Positions 33,357 to 54,081 are shown, counted from the first letter of the stretch. The stretch: DNA of 64,000 bases from a virus (IMGVR_UViG_3300042402_007915:62001-126000); one strand, 5' to 3'. Numbers and translations are program-made. Notes: generated from the sequence alone by a model not told the origin.

Positions 33357-33770
33357 ATGGCAGAAAAGAACGCTGAAGAGGTGCTTCAGAGCTTACAAGC
33401 AATGAGACAAGAAGACCTTCGCGCCCTTGCCGAAAAGGAACGCGACCTAGTTTCAATGATTAGGGTCATGGAAGGAAGGCAGAATGCTCGGCTTCAAAGA
33501 GTTGAAGACAACCTCGCAAGGATAACAACCGACAGAGATTCAGACGTGGCAGATGCAAAAGAGTCCTTGAAAGAGATCAACGAAAAGATTAGTGCTATCT
33601 CGACTAAGCTCGTACAGCACAATCTGGACTTTGCAACGTTTAGCGCCAAGTTCAGTACTAAGACTGAAGGGGCCGATAATCTACTATGGAGGATTGTAGT
33701 GCCACTAATCACTGGTGTAGGAGTAGGCGCGGCCCTATTACTCGCTAAAGTAGTACTGGGGGTTTCATGA
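33357..33770 (+). CDS. Coiled-coil membrane protein, XhlA/holin-like
   Basis: 137 residues. Residues 1-95 are a charged heptad-rich helix (VLQSLQAMRQEDLRALAEKE and onward), and residues 110-134 form one hydrophobic segment, IVVPLITGVGVGAALLLAKVV, shown here only as a 21-residue span beginning IVVPLI. A long N-terminal coil with one C-terminal membrane anchor at the end of the late operon resembles hemolysin XhlA-type lysis proteins, which act with a holin at the cytoplasmic membrane. No endolysin or second holin lies beside it, so a structural membrane role is also possible. Strong GAGGAGG ribosome site. Confidence 0.5.
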   Translation: MAEKNAEEVLQSLQAMRQEDLRALAEKERDLVSMIRVMEGRQNARLQRVEDNLARITTDRDSDVADAKESLKEINEKISAISTKLVQHNLDFATFSAKFSTKTEGADNLLWRIVVPLITGVGVGAALLLAKVVLGVS

Positions 33771-33988
33771 CAGAACTGCAATACCAAAGAGTATTGGCTC
33801 GTCTAACTAAACTAGAAAACACAATGAATGACTTGATCACTGCACACCAACACTTCATCACTGCTCTCCAGGTAACAGAACTACTAACTATTACCCAAGC
33901 AAAGATTGAAGAGCTCAGGATCACTACCGAGTCTCTTGTGGATAGGGTAGAGGTCCTAGAGGAAGAGCCTTACGAAGACCGAACGTAA
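33767..33988 (+). CDS. Small coiled-coil protein
   Basis: 73 residues, start overlaps the upstream stop (ATGA). Nearly all of it is predicted helix with hydrophobic heptads (VLARLTKLENTMNDLI; LITITQ-type centre; VDRVEVLEEE). No membrane segment. It may pair with the coil of the preceding membrane protein, with which it is translationally coupled. Last gene of the plus-strand late operon. Confidence 0.6.
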   Translation: MTELQYQRVLARLTKLENTMNDLITAHQHFITALQVTELLTITQAKIEELRITTESLVDRVEVLEEEPYEDRT

Positions 33989-34004: not shown

Positions 34005-34034
34005 AAAAGGGGAGGCACTAAGCCTCCCCCTTTT
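34005..34034. terminator. Bidirectional terminator between convergent operons
   Basis: GGGGAGGC (34009-34016) pairs with GCCTCCCC (34022-34029) around a five-base loop. AAAA precedes and CTTTT follows, so both strands read stem then U-run. It separates the plus-strand late operon ending at 33988 from the minus-strand array ending at 34033; the first bases of the last minus gene lie inside its tail. Confidence 0.9.
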
Positions 34035-34455
34035 ACTGTATATTGTATCTTGCTGAGTAATTTTCGTCCCGCTTCTCAAAGAAGAGGACAAAAAGTTCTG
34101 AACCGTCCTCTCTGATGAAGTGATATGCATCGTGCAACAGGGCTTCGATATACTTTAAGGCCTCAATCGAACCACCAAATGCTTCCGTAACGAGGTTGGG
34201 GCCGAGAGTTAGATAAGTTCTCCACGATGTTAAATTCGAATCGGATGTTTTGGTAATGAATGACGTACAAGAGTATGTGGTAGCAATCTCCTTACCTATA
34301 CGAAAAGAGATGTCATCCAAAAAGTTGATAACAGGGTCTTTGCTTAGGGGCCAAGAGCTGGGCAGGCCTAATCGATGAGGACCTACCTGGGCAGGAGTAG
34401 TTTCAACTACGGTATCCCAAGCCGAAGATTTGGGAACCTCAAGGCTTAATCTCAC
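34033..34455 (-). CDS. Tagged paralog family member 1
   Basis: 140 residues from the GTG at 34455, which overlaps the upstream stop as GTGA and follows AGGAAG. A longer frame reaches 34485, but the family tag (VRLSLEVPKSSAWD) fixes the start. The central block is FLDDISFRIGKEIA. The C-terminus (LFVLFFEKRDENYSARY) is the most diverged of the family and loses the YxYDF element. Last gene of the operon, ending in the shared terminator. Function unknown. Confidence 0.8.
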   Translation of the reverse strand: MRLSLEVPKSSAWDTVVETTPAQVGPHRLGLPSSWPLSKDPVINFLDDISFRIGKEIATTYSCTSFITKTSDSNLTSWRTYLTLGPNLVTEAFGGSIEALKYIEALLHDAYHFIREDGSELFVLFFEKRDENYSARYNIQ

Positions 34456-34883
34456 GAGTTTCTTCCTCTGTATGCGAAGTACCACTTACCATCGGGAGGT
34501 CTCCGAGAGAAATCGTAAACGTAAATAGCGTCGCTATGTCTGCGTAGATTGCTGTATGCTCTTTCAAACCACTCAATAAGTTCCCTAAGGAAAGGGTCAT
34601 TTGCATTTGGTAACGACGCAAAAGCCGTCTCTACCTCCATAACGGAGAATGCATGTGCATAGTCAATTCTGTGCGATGGAAGACTATGACACAAGACAAC
34701 AGGAAGGTTTCGTTTAACGCCAGCCTCCAGTGCACAATGCAGAGATAAGGCATTTGCGAACTCTACACCATCAGAATATCGTTTCTGAAACACGTCAATT
34801 AAATCTGGAGAAGAAGCATCGCCTGCCTCTGAAGGAGGTACATCCCAAATTGAAGACCTAACTGAACCAAGGTTTAACTTCAC
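34452..34883 (-). CDS. Tagged paralog family member 2
   Basis: 143 residues, GTG start overlapping the upstream TGA. Tag KLNLGSVRSSIWD; central FANALSLHCALEAGVKRNLP; then TAFASLPN and the end AYSNLRRHSDAIYVYDFSRR with a final FAYRGR. This copy, with the next three, forms the closest subgroup (SLPxK/N and a YRGG-type end). No signal peptide, membrane segment or known catalytic motif; probably cytoplasmic or virion-borne. Confidence 0.8.
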   Translation of the reverse strand: MKLNLGSVRSSIWDVPPSEAGDASSPDLIDVFQKRYSDGVEFANALSLHCALEAGVKRNLPVVLCHSLPSHRIDYAHAFSVMEVETAFASLPNANDPFLRELIEWFERAYSNLRRHSDAIYVYDFSRRPPDGKWYFAYRGRNS

Positions 34884-35311
34884 AGACCTCCTCCTCTGTA
34901 TCCAAAGTAGGAATAAAAGCTAGAAGGGTAACGATTGAAGTCGTAAACGTAAATGGCGTCTTTGTGACACAATGAAGAACTATATGCTCTTTGAAGTGAC
35001 TCGACTAAACAGCCTAAGAGCACATGTTCTTTATCAGGCAACCTTGAGTAAGCCGTTTGAACGGTTTGTCGTTCCAATGTAATCCCTCGATAGTGGCTGT
35101 ATTCATTACAATCGCTAAGCAAAGAAATGGGAAGGCCTCGCTTGTAAGCGGCTTCGGTTGCAAGATGCATAGATAATGCGTTCAAGAAGTCTATGGGAGA
35201 ATCGTATTGTCTTTCAAATACGTCGGTCAAATCCAAAGGAGGGACAGCTTTACCTTCAGGTGGAACTGTATCCCAAATTGAAGATCTACTTAGCTCAAGG
35301 TTTAATATCAC
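34880..35311 (-). CDS. Tagged paralog family member 3
   Basis: 143 residues, GTG start in a GTGA overlap with the upstream gene. Tag ILNLELSRSSIWD; central FLNALSMHLATEAAYKRGLP; QTAYSRLPDKE; C-terminal HKDAIYVYDFNRYP and FGYRGG. Member of the subgroup with 34452-34883 and 35308-35733. Function unknown; the conserved aromatic C-terminal strands suggest a stable folded domain. Confidence 0.8.
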   Translation of the reverse strand: MILNLELSRSSIWDTVPPEGKAVPPLDLTDVFERQYDSPIDFLNALSMHLATEAAYKRGLPISLLSDCNEYSHYRGITLERQTVQTAYSRLPDKEHVLLGCLVESLQRAYSSSLCHKDAIYVYDFNRYPSSFYSYFGYRGGGL

Positions 35312-35733
35312 CTGCCACCTCGATACCCAACATAATGTCCACCCGGGCTGTGAAAACGAGCGAAATCGTAAGCGTAAATAGCCTGTCGATGTCTTGAGGA
35401 CTCATAAGCGAGCCTAAGCCTCTGAAGGATAAACTGAACTTCAGGGCTGTCCTTATCTGGTAATGACCTGAAAGCCTCATCAACTCTTTCTTTATTTAAC
35501 GTAAAGCCCCAAACAGTATCTCTAGTGGGAAAATAACAACATAAAAGACAAGGGATCTCCCGCTTAGAAGCGTATTCCTGTGCAAGTTCTAGAGACAATA
35601 TATTCAGGAACCCTAAGGGGGTAGGATAGTTTCTACCAAACAGATCGGTATGGTCCAAGGAAGGAGCGTCTATTGTTTCGGAAAGAAATCCTTCCCAAAC
35701 AGATGATCTGGTTCCCTCAAGGTTCAGCCTCAT
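35308..35733 (-). CDS. Tagged paralog family member 4
   Basis: 141 residues, ATG start in an ATGA overlap. Tag RLNLEGTRSSVWE; central FLNILSLELAQEYASKREIP; EAFRSLPDKDSPE; C-terminal RQAIYAYDFARFHSP and VGYRGG. Cysteines in the middle (CLLCCYF) are not shared with the relatives, so a conserved metal site is unlikely. Function unknown. Confidence 0.8.
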   Translation of the reverse strand: MRLNLEGTRSSVWEGFLSETIDAPSLDHTDLFGRNYPTPLGFLNILSLELAQEYASKREIPCLLCCYFPTRDTVWGFTLNKERVDEAFRSLPDKDSPEVQFILQRLRLAYESSRHRQAIYAYDFARFHSPGGHYVGYRGGR

Positions 35734-36155
35734 AAGTATCCACCTCTATACCCTGTATAGATAACAGGGCACGATGGACGGAGAGAAAATTCAACAACAT
35801 TAATCGAACGGCAAAGCGGAGGTGTGACAGACAAAGGCACGTTACAAGTATGCCTAAAAGAGGAAATCAAACGCTCAATTTGAAGATCGTTTTTGTTTGG
35901 TAAGGACGAAAATACACTGTTTACGTAATCTTCCAGAAACGCGTAGGCCAAAATAGTTTTCTCCCCGAAGTCAGAAAGAAAAGCAAGCGGAAGGTTTTGT
36001 TCAGTTGCAATCTCTTGTGCAACAGACAAGGACAATGCATTCAGAAACTCTAAAGCAGAAGTGTATTCCCTTTCAAAGATATCGGTGCAGTTCTTCTCTC
36101 TAGGTGAGATTGCATCCCAGAGAGAATGTTTGGGAACGTTCACGTCAAGACGCAA
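35730..36155 (-). CDS. Tagged paralog family member 5
   Basis: 141 residues. The start is TTG at 36155, preceded by AGGAGGT, and lies 11 bases inside the upstream membrane-protein gene. Tag RLDVNVPKHSLWD is a degraded version; the central FLNALSLSVAQEIATEQNLP and SVFSSLPNKND are well kept; the end is INVVEFSLRPS and TGYRGG. Function unknown. Confidence 0.8.
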   Translation of the reverse strand: MRLDVNVPKHSLWDAISPREKNCTDIFEREYTSALEFLNALSLSVAQEIATEQNLPLAFLSDFGEKTILAYAFLEDYVNSVFSSLPNKNDLQIERLISSFRHTCNVPLSVTPPLCRSINVVEFSLRPSCPVIYTGYRGGYL

Positions 36156-36933
36156 AGGAAGACCTCCTGAGTTCAGCAGCTAGGGTTTTATTGGCAAGCT
36201 CTTGCTCTTGTGAAATAGATATCACTTCAGCAAGGTACTTAAGCTCTGCAGCTTTAGCGTCCTCAAAAGCATCATGGTCGGGTTGTATTTGATCCATGAA
36301 ATCCATAAGCCAATGATAGTTGACTAACTGATCAGAACAGTATTGAACAAAGTTCGTCTCATCACAGTTGCGAGCCACCATACTTTTGTCCAGGAAAGGA
36401 AACTCTCGCCGAGAAAAGTCTTCCCAGTAGTGATTGAAGTGAGCAGCATCAGCGAGTGCTGAAAATAGAACTCCAATTTTGTCCGGAGAAGGTCTTGGCA
36501 TGTGGTAGTATTTGTCTTTGTAAACAAAAGTGTACGTCGGAAAAGCTAATCTAACGCCATTGTTGGGAAGCATCTTTTTGATCGTAGAGACGAAAGGTAA
36601 ATTCAAAAAGAAAATCGGTGACAGGAAGACAATCCCACAAAGAGTCAAAACGAATGCATTCTGGAGCAATACGCTTACGAGAAAAAGAAAGAGCAGACTT
36701 GCTAGCCACAAGTCCAGACTTACGTAGAAGTAAAAAGCAAGCTGCTGAGAGCTAACGGGCAAATTGTTAGTTTTAGCGAAAGTATTGCTCCGAACCAAAA
36801 CGCGCACTTCTTTCTCAAAATGTGCCTTGGCTGGATGATTGTGGAGATTCTCATAAAGGGAGACAAGGTCTGCCTTAATCTTTAATTTCTGCTCAGTGGC
36901 CGATGAAGAGGTATTACCCTGGACGGTAGGCAT
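36145..36933 (-). CDS. Two-helix membrane protein inside the array
   Basis: 262 residues from the ATG at 36933 (MPTVQGNTSSS), which follows GGGGAGA; an upstream start at 36984 lacks a good ribosome site. About residues 83-130 form two membrane helices (WLASLLFLFLVSVLL, then ALTLCGIVF-like and SPIFFL). The rest is soluble and probably cytoplasmic: a charged N-terminus and a C-terminal helix rich in E/A/K. It lacks the family tag and is not related to its neighbours, yet is embedded between them with overlaps on both sides, which suggests a shared process at the membrane (inference). Confidence 0.7.
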   Translation of the reverse strand: MPTVQGNTSSSATEQKLKIKADLVSLYENLHNHPAKAHFEKEVRVLVRSNTFAKTNNLPVSSQQLAFYFYVSLDLWLASLLFLFLVSVLLQNAFVLTLCGIVFLSPIFFLNLPFVSTIKKMLPNNGVRLAFPTYTFVYKDKYYHMPRPSPDKIGVLFSALADAAHFNHYWEDFSRREFPFLDKSMVARNCDETNFVQYCSDQLVNYHWLMDFMDQIQPDHDAFEDAKAAELKYLAEVISISQEQELANKTLAAELRRSSFAS

Positions 36934-37369
36934 TACTGAACAGTCTCCCCTGAATTTTAGAATCTCTGATATCTTTAGAATCAAAAGTAATTATGGGGCA
37001 ATCACTCACAGCCACCCAATCCGCTACAAAGAAGAAGTTATCTTCGTAGAGTCGAAAGATCCGACTAACAAAACGAGAGTGTGAAGTATGGTCTCCAAGG
37101 TAAGCTGCAATGATTTCGGGCATCCAAAAGTCATAGTCCAAACACTCAGGTACAGCAGGAGCTAAGTCCCATCTACGGGAATAATTGTTCCAGCCCTTAC
37201 GGCGCAAGCCCTCTAGCTGCTGGCAACTTGAAATTCCATTAGCCCAAACAAGAGCACTCTCAATCCGAAGAGAAATTTCTTTCTGCTTATCCTGCGGAAC
37301 ATTAGGGACAGCGTAAATCGGGCCCCAAATATTCTCTCTCAAGGTCTCCAAATTAAGTTTCAGGGACAT
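36914..37369 (-). CDS. Tagged paralog family member 6 (diverged)
   Basis: 151 residues, ATG start in a TAATG overlap. Tag LKLNLETLRENIWG after two extra residues; central WANGISSCQQLEGLRRKG. The C-terminal block is changed: after FRLYEDNFFFVADW the sequence continues for another 35 residues without YxF. Counted in the family on the tag and central block. Function unknown. Confidence 0.7.
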   Translation of the reverse strand: MSLKLNLETLRENIWGPIYAVPNVPQDKQKEISLRIESALVWANGISSCQQLEGLRRKGWNNYSRRWDLAPAVPECLDYDFWMPEIIAAYLGDHTSHSRFVSRIFRLYEDNFFFVADWVAVSDCPIITFDSKDIRDSKIQGRLFSNAYRPG

Positions 37370-37794
37370 TACTGTAAGTCATCAAGAGTGTGACGTAGGA
37401 CGAATACAAGATTCTCATCTTCGTTGTAGATAAAGGTATAAAGTCTGACCTTGTTGGCATGGAGGAGAAGGTTGTAATTTCTCCGTAAGAATTCGGTAAA
37501 CCGCATCCTTTCTTCAAGGATCTTGCCGTCTTCGGTCTCTTGAAGAACTGCTTCTAAAATTTCCGACTCTTGAAAGGTATACACCTCTTGTACGGGAGAA
37601 GGTCTATCGTCAAGTAAAACAGATCGGCCCGCTTTGGTTAGTTTTTCTTGCTTTTCCAAAGCTAACTGTAAAGAAAGTTTGTTAAGTAAGACAATCGCTC
37701 TATCAATGGCAGATGCGTAGGTAACCTCTCCAGTCAAAGACGTCTCGGTCAGCTCCCAGATAGAGCTTCTTGGGGCTTCAAAACTTAACTTCAA
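37369..37794 (-). CDS. Tagged paralog family member 7
   Basis: 141 residues. TTG start at 37794, about 11 bases after GGAGG and overlapping the upstream gene by 17 bases. Tag LKLSFEAPRSSIWE; central LLNKLSLQLALEKQEKLTK; C-terminal NYNLLLHANKVRLYTFIYNE. No membrane or signal segment. Function unknown. Confidence 0.8.
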   Translation of the reverse strand: MKLSFEAPRSSIWELTETSLTGEVTYASAIDRAIVLLNKLSLQLALEKQEKLTKAGRSVLLDDRPSPVQEVYTFQESEILEAVLQETEDGKILEERMRFTEFLRRNYNLLLHANKVRLYTFIYNEDENLVFVLRHTLDDLQ

Positions 37795-38194
37795 AGTCGG
37801 CGCGCCTCCTCAAAAACAGAAAGAACTTATCGTACCTAATTACTTTGAAACAATAGACCTTGTAACTATGTATTGAGCTTAGATAGTACTCTCGGATTCT
37901 TTCAGGAACCCAAGAGTTAGCAAAGTTGTCCGAAGCAAGATTTGCGTCAAACACATCTTCTACGTTATCTGCTAGAAGGAAAGCGGTAACTATTGTATCT
38001 GCGTTCTTGTCATCTTCAGGGGGAGACCCAATGTCTGGATTCATTATTTGTCTGCCTCTAGCTTCGGCTTCGTAAACGCAGATTTTGTTTAGCTCTTCAA
38101 GAACAGGGTCTGCAAACTCAGGGGGCAAACGCTGCTGAGACATTTCCAACGCGTCCCAAACCCCTCCCTTTGCTGACTCAAGATTAAGTTTCAC
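37778..38194 (-). CDS. Tagged paralog family member 8
   Basis: 138 residues. GTG start at 38194 sharing its first base with the upstream TAG. Tag KLNLESAKGGVWD; central ELNKICVYEAEARGRQ; then NVEDVFDANLAS and C-terminal YYLSSIHSYKVYCFKVIRYD. The final 17 bases overlap the next gene. Function unknown. Confidence 0.8.
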   Translation of the reverse strand: MKLNLESAKGGVWDALEMSQQRLPPEFADPVLEELNKICVYEAEARGRQIMNPDIGSPPEDDKNADTIVTAFLLADNVEDVFDANLASDNFANSWVPERIREYYLSSIHSYKVYCFKVIRYDKFFLFLRRRADFEVKF

Positions 38195-38559
38195 TAGCGA
38201 GGCTTACCGAGTGAGTAATAGATCTTGCCGTCTCGCTCAAAGAAGTGCCAACGGGTAGAATAAGTGTAGAGGTTGGATATTCTATCTCTAATCTGAGCAT
38301 CCTTCTCTTTCGAGTCCTTGCCTCCAAAAAAAGCATCCCAAGCAAACTCCAAATCACAAAAGGCAGCTCCTAAAAGCTCGGGATCTCTGACCGAAGGCGA
38401 AGTCTTTGTTGTCCTATGTAGGAAATAGAACTCTGAGAGATTGTTAAACCAAGTAAGAAGACGCGACAAGTTTTCAGGGCTTTTTTCATATTTGGAATCA
38501 AAAGCTTCAGGAGCAGTACCCCAAACACTACTTCTCTCAAGGTCAAGATTGAGTTTCAT
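38194..38559 (-). CDS. Tagged paralog family member 9 (short)
   Basis: 121 residues, ATG start in an ATGA overlap. Tag KLNLDLERSSVWG; central WFNNLSEFYFLHRTTKT; LEFAWDAFFGGKD; C-terminal NLYTYSTRWHFFERDGKIYY. About 20 residues shorter than the subgroup of members 2-4, the loss lying between the central and C-terminal blocks. Function unknown. Confidence 0.75.
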   Translation of the reverse strand: MKLNLDLERSSVWGTAPEAFDSKYEKSPENLSRLLTWFNNLSEFYFLHRTTKTSPSVRDPELLGAAFCDLEFAWDAFFGGKDSKEKDAQIRDRISNLYTYSTRWHFFERDGKIYYSLGKPR

Positions 38560-38921
38560 CGATCATGCCTGTAGGCAGTAAATCCTGAACTCGTCCGCCT
38601 TGCCGTATAAAGTTTGACTTGATGTCTATGCACAGAATGGCAATAAAGCTCTTGAATCTTATGAAATAGGCGTAAATCATCTTTCCCGTCAAAGGCGGCA
38701 AGAACCTCTGCTGTGGTAAAGCTGTCTCTCATCAAACTAGGATAGGGCCGCGCATCAATTGCGACGTTCAACTCGGCGGCTCTTTTTTGAGCAAGCGTAT
38801 AAAGTAGGCCGTTAAGATAGACAAGGAGTTCAACACTCTTTTGTTGTTCTTGCTCTTGTGGAGTGAGCTCAGGCAAAGTATGCCAAATAGAAGATGGTTC
38901 CCCAGTCAAATTAAGTTTCAA
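38556..38921 (-). CDS. Tagged paralog family member 10
   Basis: 121 residues from a TTG at 38921. The frame runs open to 39191, but the family tag LKLNLTGEPSSIWH and the length of its neighbours place the start here. It overlaps the upstream gene by 11 bases. Central YLNGLLYTLAQKRAAELN; C-terminal LYCHSVHRHQVKLYTARR. Function unknown. Confidence 0.75.
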   Translation of the reverse strand: MKLNLTGEPSSIWHTLPELTPQEQEQQKSVELLVYLNGLLYTLAQKRAAELNVAIDARPYPSLMRDSFTTAEVLAAFDGKDDLRLFHKIQELYCHSVHRHQVKLYTARRTSSGFTAYRHDR

Positions 38922-39324
38922 AACTACAAGCCCACTGCCTAAAGATACGGAATTCATTCTCAGCTTCTTCAAAGACGTAAAGGTATACCTTTTCTCTGTG
39001 AACACTCGAAAGATACAAGTTCCGAATCGAAAGGATAAAACCATCCAAGGCTTCAAGGCGAAGATCTGCATCCGGAGAGGTTGATAAGTTGGCTTGTAAA
39101 GTTTCAAAAATAGATAGAATTGTATCCTTATCCCAACTGTCGATTTGGATACGAGGCTCTGTTTCATAATTGATAGAAATCTGCAACTCATCCGATCTGC
39201 GAGCAGCTTCCCCTAAGGAGAGATTATTCAAAAACTCAAGAATACTAGGAAACTCAGAGTTGGTAGAATGTGTCCTTGAAACATCCCACATAGTGGTAGG
39301 CTCTCCTTCTAGATTGAGCTTCAT
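38911..39324 (-). CDS. Tagged paralog family member 11
   Basis: 137 residues, ATG start in an ATGA overlap. Tag KLNLEGEPTTMWD; central FLNNLSLGEAARRSDELQ; C-terminal LYLSSVHREKVYLYVFEEAE. With members 10, 12 and 13 it shares the SxH...VxLY form of the last block and an ExEPxI-type middle (YETEPRIQI). Function unknown. Confidence 0.8.
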   Translation of the reverse strand: MKLNLEGEPTTMWDVSRTHSTNSEFPSILEFLNNLSLGEAARRSDELQISINYETEPRIQIDSWDKDTILSIFETLQANLSTSPDADLRLEALDGFILSIRNLYLSSVHREKVYLYVFEEAENEFRIFRQWACSFET

Positions 39325-39725
39325 TTCTCTTGTCTCCCCATGTCTAAAGATGTTTGTGTTTTCTCTCGAAAAGTATAGAGCTGTACCTCGTGGAAATGGT
39401 TTGCAGATCCATATCTTAGCCTAATCATTTCACGGAGCTGTTGATAGTGATTCCAATCTGCCAAAGTAACATCACCGACTTCAGTGGAGCCATAGGTATA
39501 AGCGCCTAAGGCCTGTGAAAGGGGCAGCTCCCTAACTGAAACAAAAGGCTCTGTCTGAAAATTGATATTCACTCCTAAACGGTTAGCTCTAAGATGGGCT
39601 TCGTCTAGAGACAATTGGTTCAAGAAAGTAATAAGCCTAGAGTGAGGAGTTTCCGGAGTCTGTGTAGTTGGTACATTCCAAAAAGAGGAGAGCTTCCCTT
39701 CAGCGGGAATAATAATGTGTACCAC
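39321..39725 (-). CDS. Tagged paralog family member 12 (altered tag)
   Basis: 134 residues from a GTG at 39725, preceded by GAGGCAGGAAGG; an ATG at 39767 is an alternative that would add 14 residues. The tag is altered to VHIIIPAEGKLSSFWN, keeping only the S-S-x-W end. Central FLNQLSLDEAHLRANRLG and C-terminal RYGSANHFHEVQLYTF are typical. QTEPFVSV parallels YETEPRIQI of member 11. Function unknown. Confidence 0.7.
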   Translation of the reverse strand: MVHIIIPAEGKLSSFWNVPTTQTPETPHSRLITFLNQLSLDEAHLRANRLGVNINFQTEPFVSVRELPLSQALGAYTYGSTEVGDVTLADWNHYQQLREMIRLRYGSANHFHEVQLYTFREKTQTSLDMGRQEK

Positions 39726-40089
39726 GCCTTCCTGCCTCGATATAATTACCGGAGACCCTAAAGACATAAGGCTTCACTCCATTGTCATGAATCGAATTGA
39801 GATACCAACTTCTTATCCTAGCGACAATATTTGTATAGGATCGAGAAGTCTGACTTTCATCCTCATAGGCTAAAAGAACGTCGCTGCGTAAAATCCCTGC
39901 AACCCAAAATGGATCAGAAGGCAGACACTCTAGTCCGCTACCTAACTGTGCAGCTCTTTCGGCTGCTAACCTGTAAGAAAGAAGACAAAGAAATTTCAGA
40001 AGCTGGTCTTCTTCATCTGATTCAGCAACGACCTGAGGTGAGGGTGCATCCCAAATGGTAGAACGTGGGGATTCAAGATTCAGTTTCAC
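39700..40089 (-). CDS. Tagged paralog family member 13
   Basis: 129 residues. GTG at 40089 overlaps the upstream stop as GTGA and follows GAGGA; the frame is open to 40140 but the tag VKLNLESPRSTIWD marks the start. Central FLCLLSYRLAAERAAQLG; C-terminal WYLNSIHDNGVKPYVFRV. First member of the contiguous array in transcription order. Function unknown. Confidence 0.8.
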   Translation of the reverse strand: MKLNLESPRSTIWDAPSPQVVAESDEEDQLLKFLCLLSYRLAAERAAQLGSGLECLPSDPFWVAGILRSDVLLAYEDESQTSRSYTNIVARIRSWYLNSIHDNGVKPYVFRVSGNYIEAGRRGTHYYSR

Positions 40090-42701: not shown

Positions 42702-43553
42702 CTAAAAGATGTATCGTATTGTCTTCGGGTCGAAGAACTCTGAATAGACTTTGGTGAAGTCAGCAATGTACTGACGCTTCAAAGACCACTTATACCTGAT
42801 GTTGTCTGGGGCGTACTCCGAATCCTTTTCCTCCTGGATGTCTGGTTTCCACAGCAAAGCACGAACGTCTTCAGAGTTCCGTTCGTGTTGGTGTTTGTTG
42901 TGCGTGAGGAAGATACATTCACATTGGGTTTTGATTCCGGCCACAGAGACTTGCCTGAACAAGTCTCTGTAGTGGTCAAGCCAGCCTGGTTCAACAATGA
43001 TCGGGCTGTAGTTAATGTGGACTTCCATGTGTTGGCTTAAGGGAAGGATAGTCTGAATACGTTTGGCAATAGGGTCTGTGCCTAGCTCCAGTACGTCAGA
43101 ATAGGCCTGAGGCATTAGGCTTACCCTGAGTCGATGCCTTTCTGGGGCGAGCTCATAAGCTTCAGGATTGAACCTGGAGGGATACTTAGTAGCGAAGGTG
43201 CTCTTGAGGTCTGCACTGGCATTGAAGAACTGAAATACTGGACGCCAATCATACAACCGAGACATGAGAGGAACGTCCGTACTGCAGCCAATATCAATAG
43301 TGTAATACTTTGGATCTACTTGATTAGGTATCTTGGCTAGAGGCTGTGTATCGCGCCACCTCTTTATGCTCTCAAGGATCTGTTCTACATTCTCATTGAA
43401 ATAAACCTTATCAAAGTTATACCGACCAACATAGCAATAAGACCGCATGCAGCCGCCAAGACACCCATAAATGAAGTTGGGTGAGATGGCGTCTGAGCTG
43501 CGGCCGTTATCCCTAGTAGTTAGAGTCTTTGTCTTTTGATGGATTAATTTCAT
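42702..43553 (-). CDS. Radical SAM enzyme of the spore photoproduct lyase family
   Basis: 283 residues. A cysteine cluster at C31, C35 and C40 (YGCLGGCMRSYCYVGRYN) would hold a [4Fe-4S] cluster and SAM. Downstream the family pattern is clear: IGCSTDVPLM and FFNASADLKSTFATK (the S/T-K strand), HINYSPIIVEPGWLDHYRDLF (given here as the SPII...GW...Y..LF element), CIFLTHNKHQ, and near the C-terminus IRYKW, which parallels the RxKWGRY of spore photoproduct lyase. That enzyme repairs a thymine photoproduct in DNA. Cysteine spacing is CX3CX4C instead of CX3CX2C. Start overlaps the upstream gene by 41 bases. Substrate in a phage is unknown; DNA lesion repair is the obvious guess. Confidence 0.75.
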   Translation of the reverse strand: MKLIHQKTKTLTTRDNGRSSDAISPNFIYGCLGGCMRSYCYVGRYNFDKVYFNENVEQILESIKRWRDTQPLAKIPNQVDPKYYTIDIGCSTDVPLMSRLYDWRPVFQFFNASADLKSTFATKYPSRFNPEAYELAPERHRLRVSLMPQAYSDVLELGTDPIAKRIQTILPLSQHMEVHINYSPIIVEPGWLDHYRDLFRQVSVAGIKTQCECIFLTHNKHQHERNSEDVRALLWKPDIQEEKDSEYAPDNIRYKWSLKRQYIADFTKVYSEFFDPKTIRYIF

Positions 43554-45621: not shown

Positions 45622-45960
45622 CTACCACCAATAGTCGAGACTGATTCGACCGTCTGAAATGGCATTGGCCTTAAAGATCTCATCAAGAATCTCTGGTAGC
45701 CATCGTTCGAAGAACGTAGCGTTGTCAGCTAAAGGTCTCTCTGCGAGAGAGGCAACTTCTACGGAAACAATTTGTCCGTTAGCAGTATCTTCAAAATAGT
45801 CCTCTCTCCACCTTAGGACCTCAGTCTCTGGGGGGCGGCTTGAGACGACTTTGTTCTTCTCAAGAAACTGCCTATAACACTCAACTAATTTCTTCTCGAA
45901 CTCCCAAATATCGTAAATAGTTTTAGGAGTCATCTTAAGGGCTTGGGGGTTTACTACCAT
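45622..45960 (-). CDS. Small hypothetical protein, paralog of its neighbour
   Basis: 112 residues. The ATG at 45960 overlaps the upstream stop. From MTPKTIYDIWEFEKKL to the end DEIFKANAISDGRISLDYWW it parallels the gene at 45954-46289 in length and in both termini (MTPxxxxD..EF...L, and I..AN......I....W). A local duplication. Mostly helical, acidic. Function unknown. Confidence 0.6.
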   Translation of the reverse strand: MVVNPQALKMTPKTIYDIWEFEKKLVECYRQFLEKNKVVSSRPPETEVLRWREDYFEDTANGQIVSVEVASLAERPLADNATFFERWLPEILDEIFKANAISDGRISLDYWW

Positions 45961-46289
45961 GAGATCTGTACCTCGATGAACTTCGTTTTCAAATCATTTG
46001 CTTGGATAATCCTTTCCAAGAGAATACCAAGAGAAGATTCAAAATGATTTCGACGTTTCTTCTCAAACGGAAGATAGTCGTCAAAATTCTTTGGGTTAAA
46101 ACGCTGTAAAGCACCGTTCCCGACTTCTGCAAAAGCGTAATCAAGCCAAGCATGAACTCGTTCAATAGCTGCATCGTTATACTGTCGGCCTTCTTCAGCA
46201 CAAAGATCTTTATAAGCTACAAGCAAGACCTTAGAGAAGTCGCGGTAATCAAAATAAATACCAGGTGTCATTCGAAGTTGTTCAAACAT
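45954..46289 (-). CDS. Small hypothetical protein, paralog of its neighbour
   Basis: 111 residues, ATG in a TAATG overlap. MTPGIYFDYRDFSKVLL and ERIIQANDLKTKFIEVQISW match the neighbouring gene at 45622-45960. Helical with short terminal strands. Function unknown. Confidence 0.6.
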   Translation of the reverse strand: MFEQLRMTPGIYFDYRDFSKVLLVAYKDLCAEEGRQYNDAAIERVHAWLDYAFAEVGNGALQRFNPKNFDDYLPFEKKRRNHFESSLGILLERIIQANDLKTKFIEVQISW

Positions 46290-46579: not shown

Positions 46580-46905
46580 AACATGTCCCTAATACTCAGC
46601 TCTGCTTGCAGTACGAACCTTGAAGCTTCAGCAGTTATGACGTCACTATCTTCCCAATCCTCAAGGTCTGCAGGGACATAAGCAATGAGTTCGTAATCTG
46701 TACCTTCATTCTCATAGCCGACAATTCGGACTCTACCCAGAGTAGGAATCTCAACGATCTGTCCAGCGATGCAATAGCGCCGCAGCTTCTCATACTTAAG
46801 CCTTTCTGCCTCAAGGCCCTTTTTGAATCCAACCCTATAGCCCCCGTAGCCGGCCGCCAAGCAACCAGCTACGAGGACAAGGGATACCACTAAGGCAGTA
46901 ATCAA
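46576..46905 (-). CDS. Small membrane-anchored protein
   Basis: 109 residues, TTG start in a TTGA overlap after GGAAG. Residues 2-24 form an N-terminal membrane helix (ITALVVSLVLVAGCLAAGYG). LVAGC has the form of a lipobox, but positive residues before it are absent, so a plain membrane anchor is more likely. A basic coil (KKGLEAERLKYEKLRR) and an acidic beta domain follow. Paired with the lipoprotein gene next to it, an inner/outer spanin-like pair is conceivable but unproven. Confidence 0.55.
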   Translation of the reverse strand: MITALVVSLVLVAGCLAAGYGGYRVGFKKGLEAERLKYEKLRRYCIAGQIVEIPTLGRVRIVGYENEGTDYELIAYVPADLEDWEDSDVITAEASRFVLQAELSIRDMF

Positions 46906-47585
46906 CGACGGCTTCCAGAGCGGTAACCGCTAGAACGAGAGCCGGAAGAACGAGAAGAGCCACTAGAGCGGTATCCGCTTGAACGAGAAGAGCTTGAAGG
47001 CGTAGTCGCACGAGGAGGAGGGCTACGATTGGTAGAAGGAGTTGAATAGTAGTTGTTTGAAGGAGCGCGCCGAACAGGCTTGGAGTTCCAAGAGGTGTTG
47101 GACTTGCCGCTAGTATAATCACGATGAACGGTATAGTCAGGAGAAGAGCGATAAGAGTGGTAGGAGGTATGGGAAGTGTGTCCAGCGGACATCACGGCCT
47201 GGTAAAGAAGAAGGTCACCAAGATCAATACCGCCGGTTTGAGCGCTTACCATAGTGCTACCACCAAGGTGCTGAGTGCTGGGAGCGAGGACCGAGTGGGC
47301 TCCACAGCCTTGCGTCCTGCAAAGAAGCTCACCGATTAGAATCTCTTCACCCTTCTTCTGGCCGTAAGAGCAAAGCTGCTCTGAGCTTCGGTCGTAGTAA
47401 GGAACGCAATACGGACCTGTATAGCTTGGAGTTTTGACTCCTTCAACAATAGTGGGCGGGAACATCTTGTCAAGGTAAGTAGTGGCAAGAACGTTTGCCT
47501 GCGGAGTAGTGAGAGTTGGTTGTGACTCAGCGCAACTCATAAGAGCTGCAAGGAGAAAAAGGAGGTAGAACTTGACTTGCGACAC
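46902..47585 (-). CDS. Predicted lipoprotein with Ser/Arg/Gly-rich tail
   Basis: 227 residues from the GTG at 47585 after TTGGAG; the frame is open to 47720 but the earlier part overlaps the upstream gene. The N-terminus VSQVKFYLLFLLAALMSCAES is a signal sequence ending in the lipobox-like LMSC, so the mature protein would begin at Cys18 and be membrane-bound by lipid. The middle has paired cysteines (GPYCVPYYD, LCSYG, LLCRTQGCG). The last 70 residues are low complexity, rich in S, R, G and Y. Possible surface or superinfection-exclusion lipoprotein. Confidence 0.65.
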   Translation of the reverse strand: MSQVKFYLLFLLAALMSCAESQPTLTTPQANVLATTYLDKMFPPTIVEGVKTPSYTGPYCVPYYDRSSEQLCSYGQKKGEEILIGELLCRTQGCGAHSVLAPSTQHLGGSTMVSAQTGGIDLGDLLLYQAVMSAGHTSHTSYHSYRSSPDYTVHRDYTSGKSNTSWNSKPVRRAPSNNYYSTPSTNRSPPPRATTPSSSSRSSGYRSSGSSRSSGSRSSGYRSGSRR

Positions 47586-47616
47586 AGAGACTCCAAGTGA
47601 GAAAGAATACTGTTTC

Positions 47617-48240
47617 TTAGGTACGCTGAAGGACGTACTGATAGTTCTCGTGAGGATGATTGACGATTGATACTTTGGCTTTGGTTGGCTCCTGAATAAT
47701 CGGGACGCCGTAAAGACCAAGCTTATTCCAGAAAGGAGTCCAATAGCGTCGACTTGCAGGAAGGATTCCTACCTTTCGTTGACCGTTATAGAAATCAATT
47801 TCGCTAGTTACCCAGCCAGAGTTGATATAAAGGAGAACGATTGCTCTCCTTAAAAACTCGCTTGGAGATCTTGAAACTCGCTCTGAATTTCCAGCAGGAC
47901 ATTCACGTCCATTCCAGGCGCCGAATCCTTCAACTAAAGTTTTCAGCACCATATCTTCGTTTGGATCGTATTCATGATAAGTGATTAAGGGATCAATCAA
48001 CTCATTCTTGATAGACGGAAGTACGTGGTAACCTAAATACCCCTGCGTACAACGAGCAAAGAAGCTCTCCAGGTTCGCAGTGTAATTCACGCCTAACGAC
48101 CTGCGCCAACGCAAAAGAAACTTCTCAATAGTTTCGTCTTGAAATTCCTGGAAAGTTTGGCCGGAAAATGCCAAGGTCTTTGGGGAACCAGTTCCCCACG
48201 CCGTGCTCATCGGAAGAGTAAAGTTTAAGTTCAGGTTCAT
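47617..48240 (-). CDS. Distant member of the tagged paralog family
   Basis: 207 residues from the ATG at 48240, after GGAGGGAC; the longer frame to 48291 runs through a terminator hairpin. Tag NLNLNFTLPMSTAWG keeps the L-N-L and S-x-x-W pattern with one inserted residue. The central block is weak (EKFLLRWRRSLGVNYTANLE) and the C-terminal one (LLYINSGWVTSEIDFYN) is recognisable. About 70 residues longer than array members. Probably a founding or displaced copy. Function unknown. Confidence 0.6.
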   Translation of the reverse strand: MNLNLNFTLPMSTAWGTGSPKTLAFSGQTFQEFQDETIEKFLLRWRRSLGVNYTANLESFFARCTQGYLGYHVLPSIKNELIDPLITYHEYDPNEDMVLKTLVEGFGAWNGRECPAGNSERVSRSPSEFLRRAIVLLYINSGWVTSEIDFYNGQRKVGILPASRRYWTPFWNKLGLYGVPIIQEPTKAKVSIVNHPHENYQYVLQRT

Positions 48241-48256: not shown

Positions 48257-48292
48257 GAACAGGGGAGAGGGTTACCCCTCTCCCCTGTCATG
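48257..48292 (-). terminator. Minus-strand Rho-independent terminator
   Basis: ACAGGGGAGAGGG (48259-48271) pairs perfectly with CCCTCTCCCCTGT (48276-48288) around a four-base loop. On the minus strand the stem is followed by TCTTTTG; the plus strand lacks a U-run. It ends transcription after 48307-48828 and separates the replication region from the accessory region. Confidence 0.85.
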
Positions 48293-48306: not shown

Positions 48307-48828
48307 TCAGGTCCTAGTTCCATACTGCCCGTAAGCAGCAGGGTCTGGCGTAATCGTATAAGATGGTTCCCAGTTCTCCGACGTGTCATCGAAAGACTTA
48401 GTCGTATCTACATACGCATACACTCCAGTCACATCTGCATGCAAGGCTACCGAGTTTGGGTTCTTGGTTAGAGCCTTAGTCAGCAGCGAAGCCAAATACA
48501 TCTTACGGTCTGGATGTACATCCCAAGCAGGTGCTCCACTTGGATGACGTTCAAACCTCTCGACCTGAATACGCTGGTACTTGGAGAGATCAACCTCACG
48601 AGTAAAGGAGAACCTAAACTCAGTAAAGCGAGGAAGCTTCCTAGTATAGACGTAGAAGACCTCGGTAAGACGATCGACAGTATCTACAGTCTTCCTGAAC
48701 GTAGCACCTCCTGGTATAAGATACCTGATGGGCCTAAAGTTCTGGGGATTAGTAGCCTTGACAATCGCTTCCTGATCCGTTGCCCTGCGGCTGGCCAGAA
48801 CCTCAGCTTTTGTTTTCTCAATAGACAT
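48307..48828 (-). CDS. Hypothetical protein, perhaps abundant
   Basis: 173 residues from ATG 48828, after GGAGGAG. Mixed alpha/beta: VFYVYTRKLPRFTEFRFSF, then helices near MYLASLLTKALTKNPN and a final acidic stretch. Ends at its own strong terminator. It has no signal sequence or known motif. The gene has a strong ribosome site and private terminator, which may mean high expression. Confidence 0.65.
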   Translation of the reverse strand: MSIEKTKAEVLASRRATDQEAIVKATNPQNFRPIRYLIPGGATFRKTVDTVDRLTEVFYVYTRKLPRFTEFRFSFTREVDLSKYQRIQVERFERHPSGAPAWDVHPDRKMYLASLLTKALTKNPNSVALHADVTGVYAYVDTTKSFDDTSENWEPSYTITPDPAAYGQYGTRT

Positions 48829-48895
48829 GAACAATCTCCTCCGGGAAGCGACCAGCGCTTGCCTGTTTTGCAGTGTAGAACAAGATGACTTATTT

Positions 48896-49533: not shown

Positions 49534-49914
49534 CTAATCTTTGTAGTTTAAGGCGGCCCAGTCTTCAAGCGTCATCTTTTGGGCAAGCTTAAGCCAATCC
49601 TTTAGTCTCATGGTCACAAGCACATCGTCTCGATCATCCTGCGTTACGACAACAGGGATACGGTTCTCCTTAGAGGCCTTGATATCTTCGTGTGCTTGGA
49701 ATAAAGCCCCCTTGATATTGGTTCGCTTTCCCTTCTTGCATTCTATGTGTAAGCGAGGGATGTCGGGAGAGACAACATCCGAAGTTTCAGCACCACCTGA
49801 TCTAGTCTGGTGTAGTCCTCTTCGGAACTGAACCCCAAGTGCTTCAGATAGAATGATAGCAATAGCACGCTCAAAGTTATGACCTTTGCGTCGAACACCT
49901 GCGCCTCCTGGCAT
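49534..49914 (-). CDS. PD-(D/E)XK nuclease, Holliday junction resolvase-like
   Basis: 126 residues, start MPGGAGVRRKGHNFERAIA. An early glutamate (NFERAI), then SDVV and the strand LHIECKKGKR give the E...D...ExK core of a PD-(D/E)XK nuclease; size and the RRKGHxFER start match small resolvase-type enzymes such as Hjc. These act on branched DNA, useful before packaging. It is separated from the upstream ClpP-like gene by nine bases. Strong AGAGGAAG site. Confidence 0.7.
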   Translation of the reverse strand: MPGGAGVRRKGHNFERAIAIILSEALGVQFRRGLHQTRSGGAETSDVVSPDIPRLHIECKKGKRTNIKGALFQAHEDIKASKENRIPVVVTQDDRDDVLVTMRLKDWLKLAQKMTLEDWAALNYKD

Positions 49915-49923
49915 ATCTTCCTC

Positions 49924-50673
49924 TCAGTCCTTAAGGATTTCGGGTTTGCATTCCGTGAGAGCCGCAATAACCAAGTCTTCAATCTTGGCAAAATTCTTCT
50001 TAGGGGCGGGCTCAATAATCTCGTCAATGAGGCCAAACTTAAGTGCCTCCTTGGTTGTCATGGAGAAGTCAATGTTGTTCTCGAAATACTTCTTGAACTT
50101 CTTCTTTGACATCCCAGAGCGTTGAATAACAAGCTTCTTCAACCGCTTGGCAGTAAGCTGATACTGCCTGTAGTTAGTAGCTGCCTGGATCGGGTTGACT
50201 GTCATATTCATTGAAATGGCCTCATGCCAGAACAGTCTTGTGTTTGGGTATGCAAGACGGCAGTTGCCAGCCTGGAGGATAAGGAAGCCCGCAGATGCAC
50301 AGTCGCCCATTGCAATAGTTACAATCGGGCAAGGAGAAGATACTAGCGTGTCGTAAATAGCAAAGAATGCAGTTACGTCTCCGCCTCCCGAATTGACATA
50401 AACGTAGATCGGAAGAGTATCACTGTCCTGCTGTAGAGACCAAATCTGGGTACAAATAGCTGCGGCCAGTTGCTCGTTGAACTCTCCAGTAATCAGAACA
50501 GATCGACTTTCTCTTCCAAGGCCGACTACTGAGTTCGGCGTCCAATCCTCAGGGGCCGAAATACCTGTGATCATACCAGACTCGCTACCCTCTAGAAGCT
50601 CGGTATCTGAACCCTCATCATTTTCCGGGTCACAATCCATATTGACTTTCGTCAGAGGCCTAAAAGTTGTCAT
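49924..50673 (-). CDS. ClpP-like serine protease
   Basis: 249 residues. Catalytic triad visible: S127 in GDCASAGFL, H150 in TRLFWHEA, and D202 in NNIDFSMTTKEA, the last placed 8 residues before the A of KEA as in E. coli ClpP. VYVNSGGGDV and FGLIDEI are also family features. In cells ClpP degrades proteins with an ATPase partner; no ClpX-like partner lies nearby, so it may use the host's or work alone. A ClpP-type prohead protease is the alternative, but capsid genes are absent from this neighbourhood. About 40 extra N-terminal residues compared with ClpP. Confidence 0.85.
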   Translation of the reverse strand: MTTFRPLTKVNMDCDPENDEGSDTELLEGSESGMITGISAPEDWTPNSVVGLGRESRSVLITGEFNEQLAAAICTQIWSLQQDSDTLPIYVYVNSGGGDVTAFFAIYDTLVSSPCPIVTIAMGDCASAGFLILQAGNCRLAYPNTRLFWHEAISMNMTVNPIQAATNYRQYQLTAKRLKKLVIQRSGMSKKKFKKYFENNIDFSMTTKEALKFGLIDEIIEPAPKKNFAKIEDLVIAALTECKPEILKD

Positions 50674-53223: not shown

Positions 53224-54081
53224 TCACTTGCTGTCTTTCTGAACAATTGTTCTTAGCTTCTGTAAGAATTCAGCTCGTTCACTTGTACTCATTGAAGAAT
53301 CGAATATCAAGTCTCGGCTCTCTTTGTCTGGCGGCATATTCTCAAGAGCACCCACAAAGACACCAAGATTGCTAAGAGTCGTCATCTCTTTGGCCGTAAA
53401 GGTAATTGCGTTGAGCTGATAGTCCAAGAAGTCTTGGGCAATAATGGGCCAGTGTTCTTTAATGATTTCAAATACAGCCTGTGCATAGAGACGAATCTCT
53501 AGCTGTGCATGCTCATCTAAACGAGCCTTGAGGAATAAAAGCCAGTCGCCAAGATTGGCTTTAACAAAGAACGTAATGTACTGACCGACAGAAGTAACTG
53601 ATCGGGCTTGTTCTCTGCAGACCCCAAGCTCCAAGAGCCTGTTGTAAGCAGAGCGGCAATCCATTTCCGAAGTAGCATGAAGGTACTCGGCCTCCTCATA
53701 CTTCTCTTCCTCAAGGGAACCGGAACCAACCTGCTTGTTAGCACCAGATCCTTGCGAACGGAAACCACCAGTGTCTTGAGGAACCCAAAAGTCCTCACTC
53801 AGTACTGAATAGCGGGCGGACTCAACATTGAAAATAAAACGGTCATGCCGAACCCACTGATTGAACACAAACATTGGGGCACGAACCTGGAGCTTAAGCT
53901 CACACATGCCAAACGGAGAGAAGTGCTTGTGCCTATGAAGGTAGGATAGGAGACCCCTATCTTCATTTACCGTCTTAGTGCCTCCTTGGTAGGAGGCCCT
54001 TGCTGCCTGTGCAACTGCACTATCGTTTCCCATGTGATCAATACGCCTAACAAAACCCTTACCAATATTGTATTCATTCAT
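53224..54081 (-). CDS. thyX: Flavin-dependent thymidylate synthase ThyX, atypical motif
   Basis: 285 residues from ATG 54081 (a GTG at 54084 overlaps the primase stop). ThyX makes dTMP from dUMP using FAD and NADPH. The signature region reads RHDRFIFNVESARYS (residues 78-92), against the usual RHRxxSxNExSxRYS: the third R is D, the S is I and the E is shifted by one. Flanking family features are present: FSPFGMCELKLQVRAPMFVFNQW split around the motif, and the C-terminal ITFFVKANLGDWLLFLKAR. Coupled to the primase-helicase gene. Likely active, but the changed motif leaves doubt. Confidence 0.85.
   Translation of the reverse strand: MNEYNIGKGFVRRIDHMGNDSAVAQAARASYQGGTKTVNEDRGLLSYLHRHKHFSPFGMCELKLQVRAPMFVFNQWVRHDRFIFNVESARYSVLSEDFWVPQDTGGFRSQGSGANKQVGSGSLEEEKYEEAEYLHATSEMDCRSAYNRLLELGVCREQARSVTSVGQYITFFVKANLGDWLLFLKARLDEHAQLEIRLYAQAVFEIIKEHWPIIAQDFLDYQLNAITFTAKEMTTLSNLGVFVGALENMPPDKESRDLIFDSSMSTSERAEFLQKLRTIVQKDSK

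What the first reader, a model, noticed from the sequence alone, without database searches (positions are those of the whole stretch)
34033..40089. Tandem array of thirteen paralogs sharing an N-terminal tag: possible new system
Each protein (120-151 residues) begins with a short tag close to M-K-L-N-L-E-x-x-R-S-S-I-W-D. It then shares FLNxLSLxLAxE and a C-terminal SxHxxxVxLYxF block, while the rest has diverged strongly. Keeping the first 14 residues while the body varies suggests the tag is recognised by one partner, for example a virion-packaging, compartment-targeting or protease-recognition signal (T4 internal head proteins use short N-terminal targeting tags in that way). The bodies could then be a set of variable effectors or decoys against host defences. 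Seen: tag and blocks. Inferred: role.
Basis: partly seen in the sequence, partly recalled or inferred. Interest (0 to 1): 0.85.

Follow-up and report, generated by a model that had tools for sequence, protein, structure and literature searches.

The report
Thirteen-gene tagged family in a phage
This bacterial virus carries thirteen side-by-side copies of an unknown small gene, whose products share a nearly fixed 14-residue front end joined to widely differing bodies; the front end looks like a docking label, possibly for packing the proteins into the virus head, but no partner or function has been shown.

Summary
Thirteen tandem minus-strand genes (34033-40089; 121-151 aa) are paralogs. Leave-one-out profiles recover all 13, ten of them strongly by the body alone. 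One unrelated membrane-protein gene (36145-36933) sits inside the array.

The 13 tag columns after the start average 1.30 bits of conservation. The best 13-column block elsewhere has 0.88, and the whole remainder about 0.50. Synonymous codons in the tag vary, so selection is on the peptide. In two AlphaFold models from different subfamilies the tag lies outside the confident fold and is low-confidence coil. A tag profile built without it also finds gene 47617-48240, whose body does not match.

The record is a 147-kb myovirus-like phage. The array lies in a 14.3-kb island between conserved convergent flanks. Relatives have about 0.2-3.6 kb there, without array or tag. No match appeared in Pfam, PHROGs, NCBIfam, PADLOC, the PDB or BFVD folds, cultured phages, IMG/VR or GTDB.

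Best reading: a lineage-specific, tandemly duplicated accessory family with a shared docking peptide. Packaging into the head, as with T4 internal proteins, is the likeliest specific role (about 0.35) but unproven; intracellular docking is close behind.

The parts
34005..34033 (-). Hairpin with T-rich ends on both strands, between the convergent structural module and the array (likely bidirectional terminator)
   Evidence: -22.5 kcal/mol; equivalent hairpins in L134 and G004
34033..34455 (-). array member 1 (GTG start; RLSLEVPKSSAWD tag; divergent body)
34452..34883 (-). array member 2 (KLNLGSVRSSIWD)
34880..35311 (-). array member 3 (ILNLELSRSSIWD); AlphaFold model 1
35308..35733 (-). array member 4 (RLNLEGTRSSVWE)
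35730..36155 (-). array member 5 (RLDVNVPKHSLWD)
36145..36933 (-). NOT a family member: 262-aa protein with a hydrophobic, apparently membrane-spanning segment, embedded in the array, no tag
36914..37369 (-). array member 6 (MSLKLNLETLRENIWG; two residues before the tag; most divergent body)
37369..37794 (-). array member 7 (KLSFEAPRSSIWE)
37778..38194 (-). array member 8 (KLNLESAKGGVWD)
38194..38559 (-). array member 9 (KLNLDLERSSVWG; shortened C-terminal block)
38556..38921 (-). array member 10 (TTG start at 38921; KLNLTGEPSSIWH)
38911..39324 (-). array member 11 (KLNLEGEPTTMWD); AlphaFold model 2
39321..39767 (-). array member 12 (decayed tag HIIIPAEGKLSSFWN; alternative GTG start at 39725)
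39700..40089 (-). array member 13, first of the array in transcription order (KLNLESPRSTIWD)
47617..48240 (-). 14th tagged protein (MNLNLNFTLPMSTAWG), 207 aa, body not matching the family; first gene of the island
48258..48289 (-). Strong hairpin (14 pairs, weak T run) after the last conserved core gene (48307-48834) and just before gene 47617; a terminator sits at the same place in L134
34033..48306 (-). Lineage-specific 14.3-kb island between conserved flanks 33767-33988 (+) and 48307-48834 (-)

Best explanation
This is a lineage-specific accessory gene family that grew by tandem duplication at the far end of the phage's leftward (replication-gene) operon. Each product is a small alpha/beta domain preceded by a flexible, conserved 14-residue peptide (M-K-L-N-L-E-x-x-R-S-S-[IV]-W-D). 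The peptide docks every member onto one common partner; the bodies diversify. Shown: the family, the tag, its greater conservation, its place outside the confident fold, the tandem origin, and absence from relatives. Inferred: docking itself, and the partner. The partner I think likeliest is the prohead core or inner shell, so that the proteins are packaged and ejected with the DNA, in the way of T4 internal proteins or P1 DarB. Confidence 0.35 is for this packaging form; about 0.6 for docking to some common partner.
For: Tag 1.30 bits/column against 0.88 for the best other block and about 0.50 for the whole remainder; 43% tag identity in pairs with only 16% body identity. Varied synonymous codons (L3 uses TTA, CTT, CTG, CTC) rule out recent DNA homogenisation. 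Residues 1-18 and 1-26 are coil at low pLDDT while bodies reach 90 or more, in two subfamilies. A 14th tagged protein has a non-matching body. Neighbours are more alike than distant genes (Mantel r -0.41, p 0.00075). The island is absent or much smaller in kin. The phage has a candidate prohead protease fused to a scaffold-like tail (L007:3298-4779, PHROG head maturation protease E 1e-4), which a packaging route with processing would need. Precedents: the first 10 residues of T4 IPIII suffice for packaging (PMC9026906); 30 residues of P1 DarB suffice (PMC9024508); SPN3US virion paralogs gp53 and gp54 have identical first 15 residues, and its virion paralog families reach 20 members (PMC5694885).
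Against: No virion proteomics exist for this uncultured phage. The array runs opposite to the structural genes, with the replication operon. Members are mostly acidic (pI 4.5-7.9), whereas T4 internal proteins are basic (own knowledge). The tag has no T4-type L/I-x-E cleavage site; eight of 13 have N/S-x-E at residues 4-6, which is only suggestive. No tagged protein was found among the structural genes or in kin that share the same head proteins, as might be expected if the partner were a conserved head protein.
Confidence: 0.35

Rival explanations
1. Same docking peptide, but the partner is inside the infected cell (a host machine or a non-virion phage protein). The array makes a set of host-takeover or counter-defence effectors brought to one target by the tag; nothing is packaged.
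For: The array sits at the distal end of the operon that begins with DNA polymerase and primase-helicase genes; accessory location and strong variation between phages are typical of such genes. Absence of the tag from structural proteins and from kin with conserved heads fits a non-virion partner.
Against: No match to any defence or anti-defence model beyond chance; timing of expression is inferred only; partner unknown.
Confidence: 0.27
2. The tag is an inter-subunit arm: the paralogs co-assemble with each other (strand or arm exchange), giving a mixed oligomer, filament or shell, so the tag's partner is the family's own body domain.
For: Strand-like alternation K-L-N-L-E and an invariant Trp; conserved core positions in the body (N, S, Y, H) could form the acceptor; co-transcribed, overlapping genes favour co-assembly.
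Confidence: 0.17
3. The tag is not a separate signal. It packs onto its own domain, AlphaFold with 13 sequences missed it, and strong N-terminal conservation is ordinary.
For: Shallow alignment; the first ten residues reach pLDDT 60 in model 2; C-terminal strands could accept another strand.
Against: Low confidence in two subfamilies while the bodies reach 90 or more; conservation is far above the rest; the linker after it is highly variable in length; the tag recurs on gene 47617.
Confidence: 0.14
4. The tag is a proteolysis signal (N-terminal degron) read by a phage protease, for example the phage's own ClpP homologue with its Lon-like AAA+ ATPase.
For: The phage encodes a ClpP (49924-50673, PF00574 E 8e-34) and an AAA+ ATPase with PHROG protease/ATPase-type hits (record 141488-143368).
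Against: Kin have homologues of ClpP and, in G004, of the ATPase but no tag; no selective reason for 13 unstable paralogs.
Confidence: 0.05

Closest known systems
T4 internal head proteins IPI, IPII, IPIII with the capsid targeting sequence (CTS)
   Same: Small accessory proteins with a short N-terminal peptide kept while bodies diverge; variable gene set between related phages; 10 residues suffice for targeting (PMC9026906).
   Different: Three genes, not thirteen; CTS sequence unrelated and cut at an L/I-x-E type site (own knowledge), which the tag here lacks; T4 proteins are basic (own knowledge), these mostly acidic; no sequence or fold match found.
Salmonella phage SPN3US / phiKZ virion paralog families A and B
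   Same: Multi-member paralog families (2-7 and up to 20) varying in number between phages; gp53 and gp54 share an identical first 15 residues (PMC5694885).
   Different: Propeptides mostly over 100 residues; those phages are unrelated here; no PF12699-type or other Pfam hit in the array members scanned.
P1 DarB N-terminal packaging signal
   Same: An N-terminal stretch (30 residues) sends a reporter into the capsid; anti-restriction role (PMC9024508).
   Different: Single 250-kDa protein; no array; no sequence relation tested or seen.

Membership tests
T4-type internal head protein with CTS | Short conserved N-terminal peptide on diverged small bodies | tested here: met
   tag outside fold
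T4-type internal head protein with CTS | Sequence homology to known internal proteins | tested here: not met
   no Pfam, PHROG or NCBIfam family; no match for members 34452 and 38911 in 50,697 phage records
T4-type internal head protein with CTS | Removal of the peptide by the prohead protease at an L/I-x-E type site | tested here: inconclusive
   No L/I-x-E in the tag; N/S-x-E at residues 4-6 in 8 of 13 (read); protease specificity of this phage unknown; capsid N-termini of kin uninformative
T4-type internal head protein with CTS | Phage encodes a prohead protease | tested here: inconclusive
   L007:3298-4779 hits a PHROG head maturation protease at E 1e-4 only, no Pfam hit
T4-type internal head protein with CTS | Presence inside the virion | not testable with these tools
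   needs virion proteomics
SPN3US/phiKZ inner-head paralog families (e.g. PF12699) | Match to the family profile | tested here: not met
   no such hit among the array members scanned: eight at E up to 1 (which also held 36145 and 47617) and a ninth at E up to 0.05; four members not scanned against Pfam
Known anti-defence or defence protein family | Profile match shared by members | tested here: not met
   PADLOC: three single-member weak hits only; this library covers defence, not counter-defence, so the test is partial

The most novel reading that the evidence does not exclude
A new protein family in which a portable 14-residue N-terminal sorting peptide, unrelated to any known signal, delivers a whole panel of diversified proteins (13 paralogs plus at least one protein with a different body) to one site, most interestingly into the phage head for ejection into the host.
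Probability: 0.3. Interest if true: 0.8.

Novelty: new variant of a known kind. Interest (0 to 1): 0.55.

Why it matters
If the tag is a sorting peptide, it gives a compact, testable signal for loading cargo, and a panel of thirteen diversified proteins that probably act on host variation. The number of copies, the orphan fold and the absence from relatives make it a clear case of gene-family growth in a virus. Fusing the tag to a reporter would settle the main question quickly once a host or a surrogate system is available.

Tried and rejected
Descent from the conserved neighbour 48307-48834 (a weak blast hit suggested it): rejected, profile comparison E 0.19 with probability 0.3%. Tag-like start in related locus L051 (score 9.7): chance, homologues lack it. 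Weak profile hits in L199-L201: E 0.02-0.04, a spread-out match in the middle of another protein, not convincing. Winged-helix or RepE-like fold (helix-strand-helix-helix-strand-strand order): Foldseek E about 1 with TM below 0.2, rejected; archease 1jw3 appears in both PDB searches but at TM 0.26-0.27. Known fold among viral models: none. RiPP-like leader with variable core: considered because a spore-photoproduct-lyase-like gene is nearby, rejected because the bodies are conserved folded domains of 100 residues or more. Island as a separate transcription unit: the hairpin at 48258 suggested it, but only 17 bases remain before the next start, so readthrough from the upstream operon is more likely. 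Homologue searches in IMG/VR, GTDB genomes, phages and 51 related records plus fetched loci found none; the pattern scans reach close relatives only, and near-identical records may be left out by the tool.

Full report
WHAT THE WINDOW IS. The window is positions 62001-126000 of a 147,225-base virus record. The record encodes a large terminase, a capsid protein (PF25209, E 7e-12) and a replication set with a DnaE-type polymerase, primase-helicase and thymidylate synthase. The terminase is about 30% identical to Moorella phage MTATph1 and Acinetobacter phage ME3; ME3's own terminase is annotated as resembling that of Bacillus phage 0305phi8-36. An alignment-guided scan found 79 IMG/VR loci, the best 45-60% identical in terminase. 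So this is a poorly sampled lineage of large myovirus-like phages ('myovirus-like' is inferred from these relatives).

THE OBSERVATION. The thirteen genes are real. They overlap head to tail, often by four bases, and the end of one gene often encodes the Shine-Dalgarno of the next; the repeated C-terminal 'GYRGG' of the proteins is partly this. Every member is recovered by a profile of the other twelve (E 6e-4 or better), and ten are recovered by the body alone at E 1.6e-5 or better; 38194, 36914 and 34033 depend largely on the tag. Body identity falls with distance along the array (Mantel r -0.41, p 0.00075), as expected from tandem duplication. One foreign gene with a hydrophobic, apparently membrane-spanning segment, 36145-36933, interrupts the array.

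THE TAG. Columns 2-14 carry 1.30 bits each; the best 13-column block elsewhere has 0.88 and the whole remainder averages about 0.50. Leaving out the invariant tryptophan, the tag still has 0.94. In 45 pairs with under 20% body identity the tag is still 43% identical. Codons for the fixed residues vary, so the peptide is selected, not the DNA. In AlphaFold models of two subfamilies it is not: residues 1-18 and 1-26 are low-confidence coil, while helices and strands of the body reach pLDDT above 90. The alignment is shallow, so low confidence is not proof of disorder.

A FOURTEENTH TAG. A tag profile built from twelve array members scores gene 47617-48240 at 16.3; the best other reading frame in the genome scores 4.0, and the best of 65,880 shuffled N-termini scores 11.3. 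The body of that protein does not match the family. It is the first gene of the island, so tagged genes stand at both ends.

THE ISLAND. In relatives the last structural gene (33767-33988 family) and the first gene of the opposing operon (48307-48834 family) are direct or near neighbours: a few hundred bases or less apart in G004, G005, G006 and G007, about 2 kb in G009, 3.6 kb in L134. Here 14.3 kb lies between them. L134, the closest kin with this junction (primase 63%, nuclease 82%), has in its 3.6 kb a homologue of window gene 46902 (24.7%, E 1e-6) and, by eye, of 46576, but no array gene and no tag. Both phages have a hairpin after the 48307 family gene and another at the convergent end. 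The array was therefore gained, or grew, after these lineages split, or was lost from the others.

SEARCH FOR RELATIVES. Nothing in Pfam, PHROGs, NCBIfam, PADLOC, PDB sequences, PDB or BFVD folds, cultured phages, IMG/VR, GTDB genomes or the roughly 3 Mb of kin contigs fetched here. The pattern-based scans find only close relatives, and near-identical records may be hidden, so 'orphan' means orphan at this sensitivity.

HOW IT MOST LIKELY WORKS. A conserved flexible peptide on a variable folded body, repeated thirteen times and once on another body, is best read as a docking signal for one partner. The best-known phage precedents for this pattern are proteins packed into heads: T4 internal proteins, P1 DarB and the SPN3US paralogs. 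Against it, the array is transcribed with the replication operon, the proteins are mostly acidic, and kin with the same head proteins show no tag. Intracellular docking is nearly as likely. Co-assembly of the paralogs, a strand of the own fold, or a degron are weaker readings.

VERDICT. Observation confirmed; interpretation partly supported: the tag is real, portable in one further case and outside the predicted fold, but its role is untested.

Noticed in passing
window 49924-50673: ClpP-type protease (PF00574, E 8e-34) conserved in all kin with this region; an AAA+ ATPase with Lon-like sequence (own reading) and no evident protease domain lies at record 141488-143368. They might form a phage-encoded ATP-dependent protease.
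   Followed up: partly
window 42702-43553: Protein in the island just below the Pfam cut-off for spore photoproduct lyase (PF20903, E 3e-6), a radical-SAM repair enzyme; an unusual phage gene.
   Followed up: partly
window 45622-45960 and 45954-46289: Second, smaller tandem paralog pair in the same island (22% identity, E 4.5e-4).
   Followed up: partly
window 36145-36933: Orphan protein with a hydrophobic, apparently membrane-spanning segment, inserted between array members 5 and 6; could be a partner of the family.
   Followed up: no
window 34452-36155: The repeated C-terminal GYRGG of array proteins encodes the ribosome-binding site of the next gene, so part of the C-terminal conservation is translational, not structural.
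   Followed up: partly
window 49534-49914: PD-(D/E)XK phage endonuclease (PF24608, E 3e-11), strongly conserved across the lineage; useful marker for finding relatives.
   Followed up: yes
L014: IMG/VR fragment 3300042386_000635 encodes a capsid protein stretch 100% identical to this phage's, so the same or a near-identical phage occurs in another record.
   Followed up: no
window 46902-47639: Protein with a lipoprotein-like start and a long Ser/Arg/Tyr-rich low-complexity tail; a diverged homologue lies in L134 (14051-14773).
   Followed up: no
record 53597-55670 (outside the window): Three consecutive related structural genes (24-25% identity), conserved in G004.
   Followed up: no
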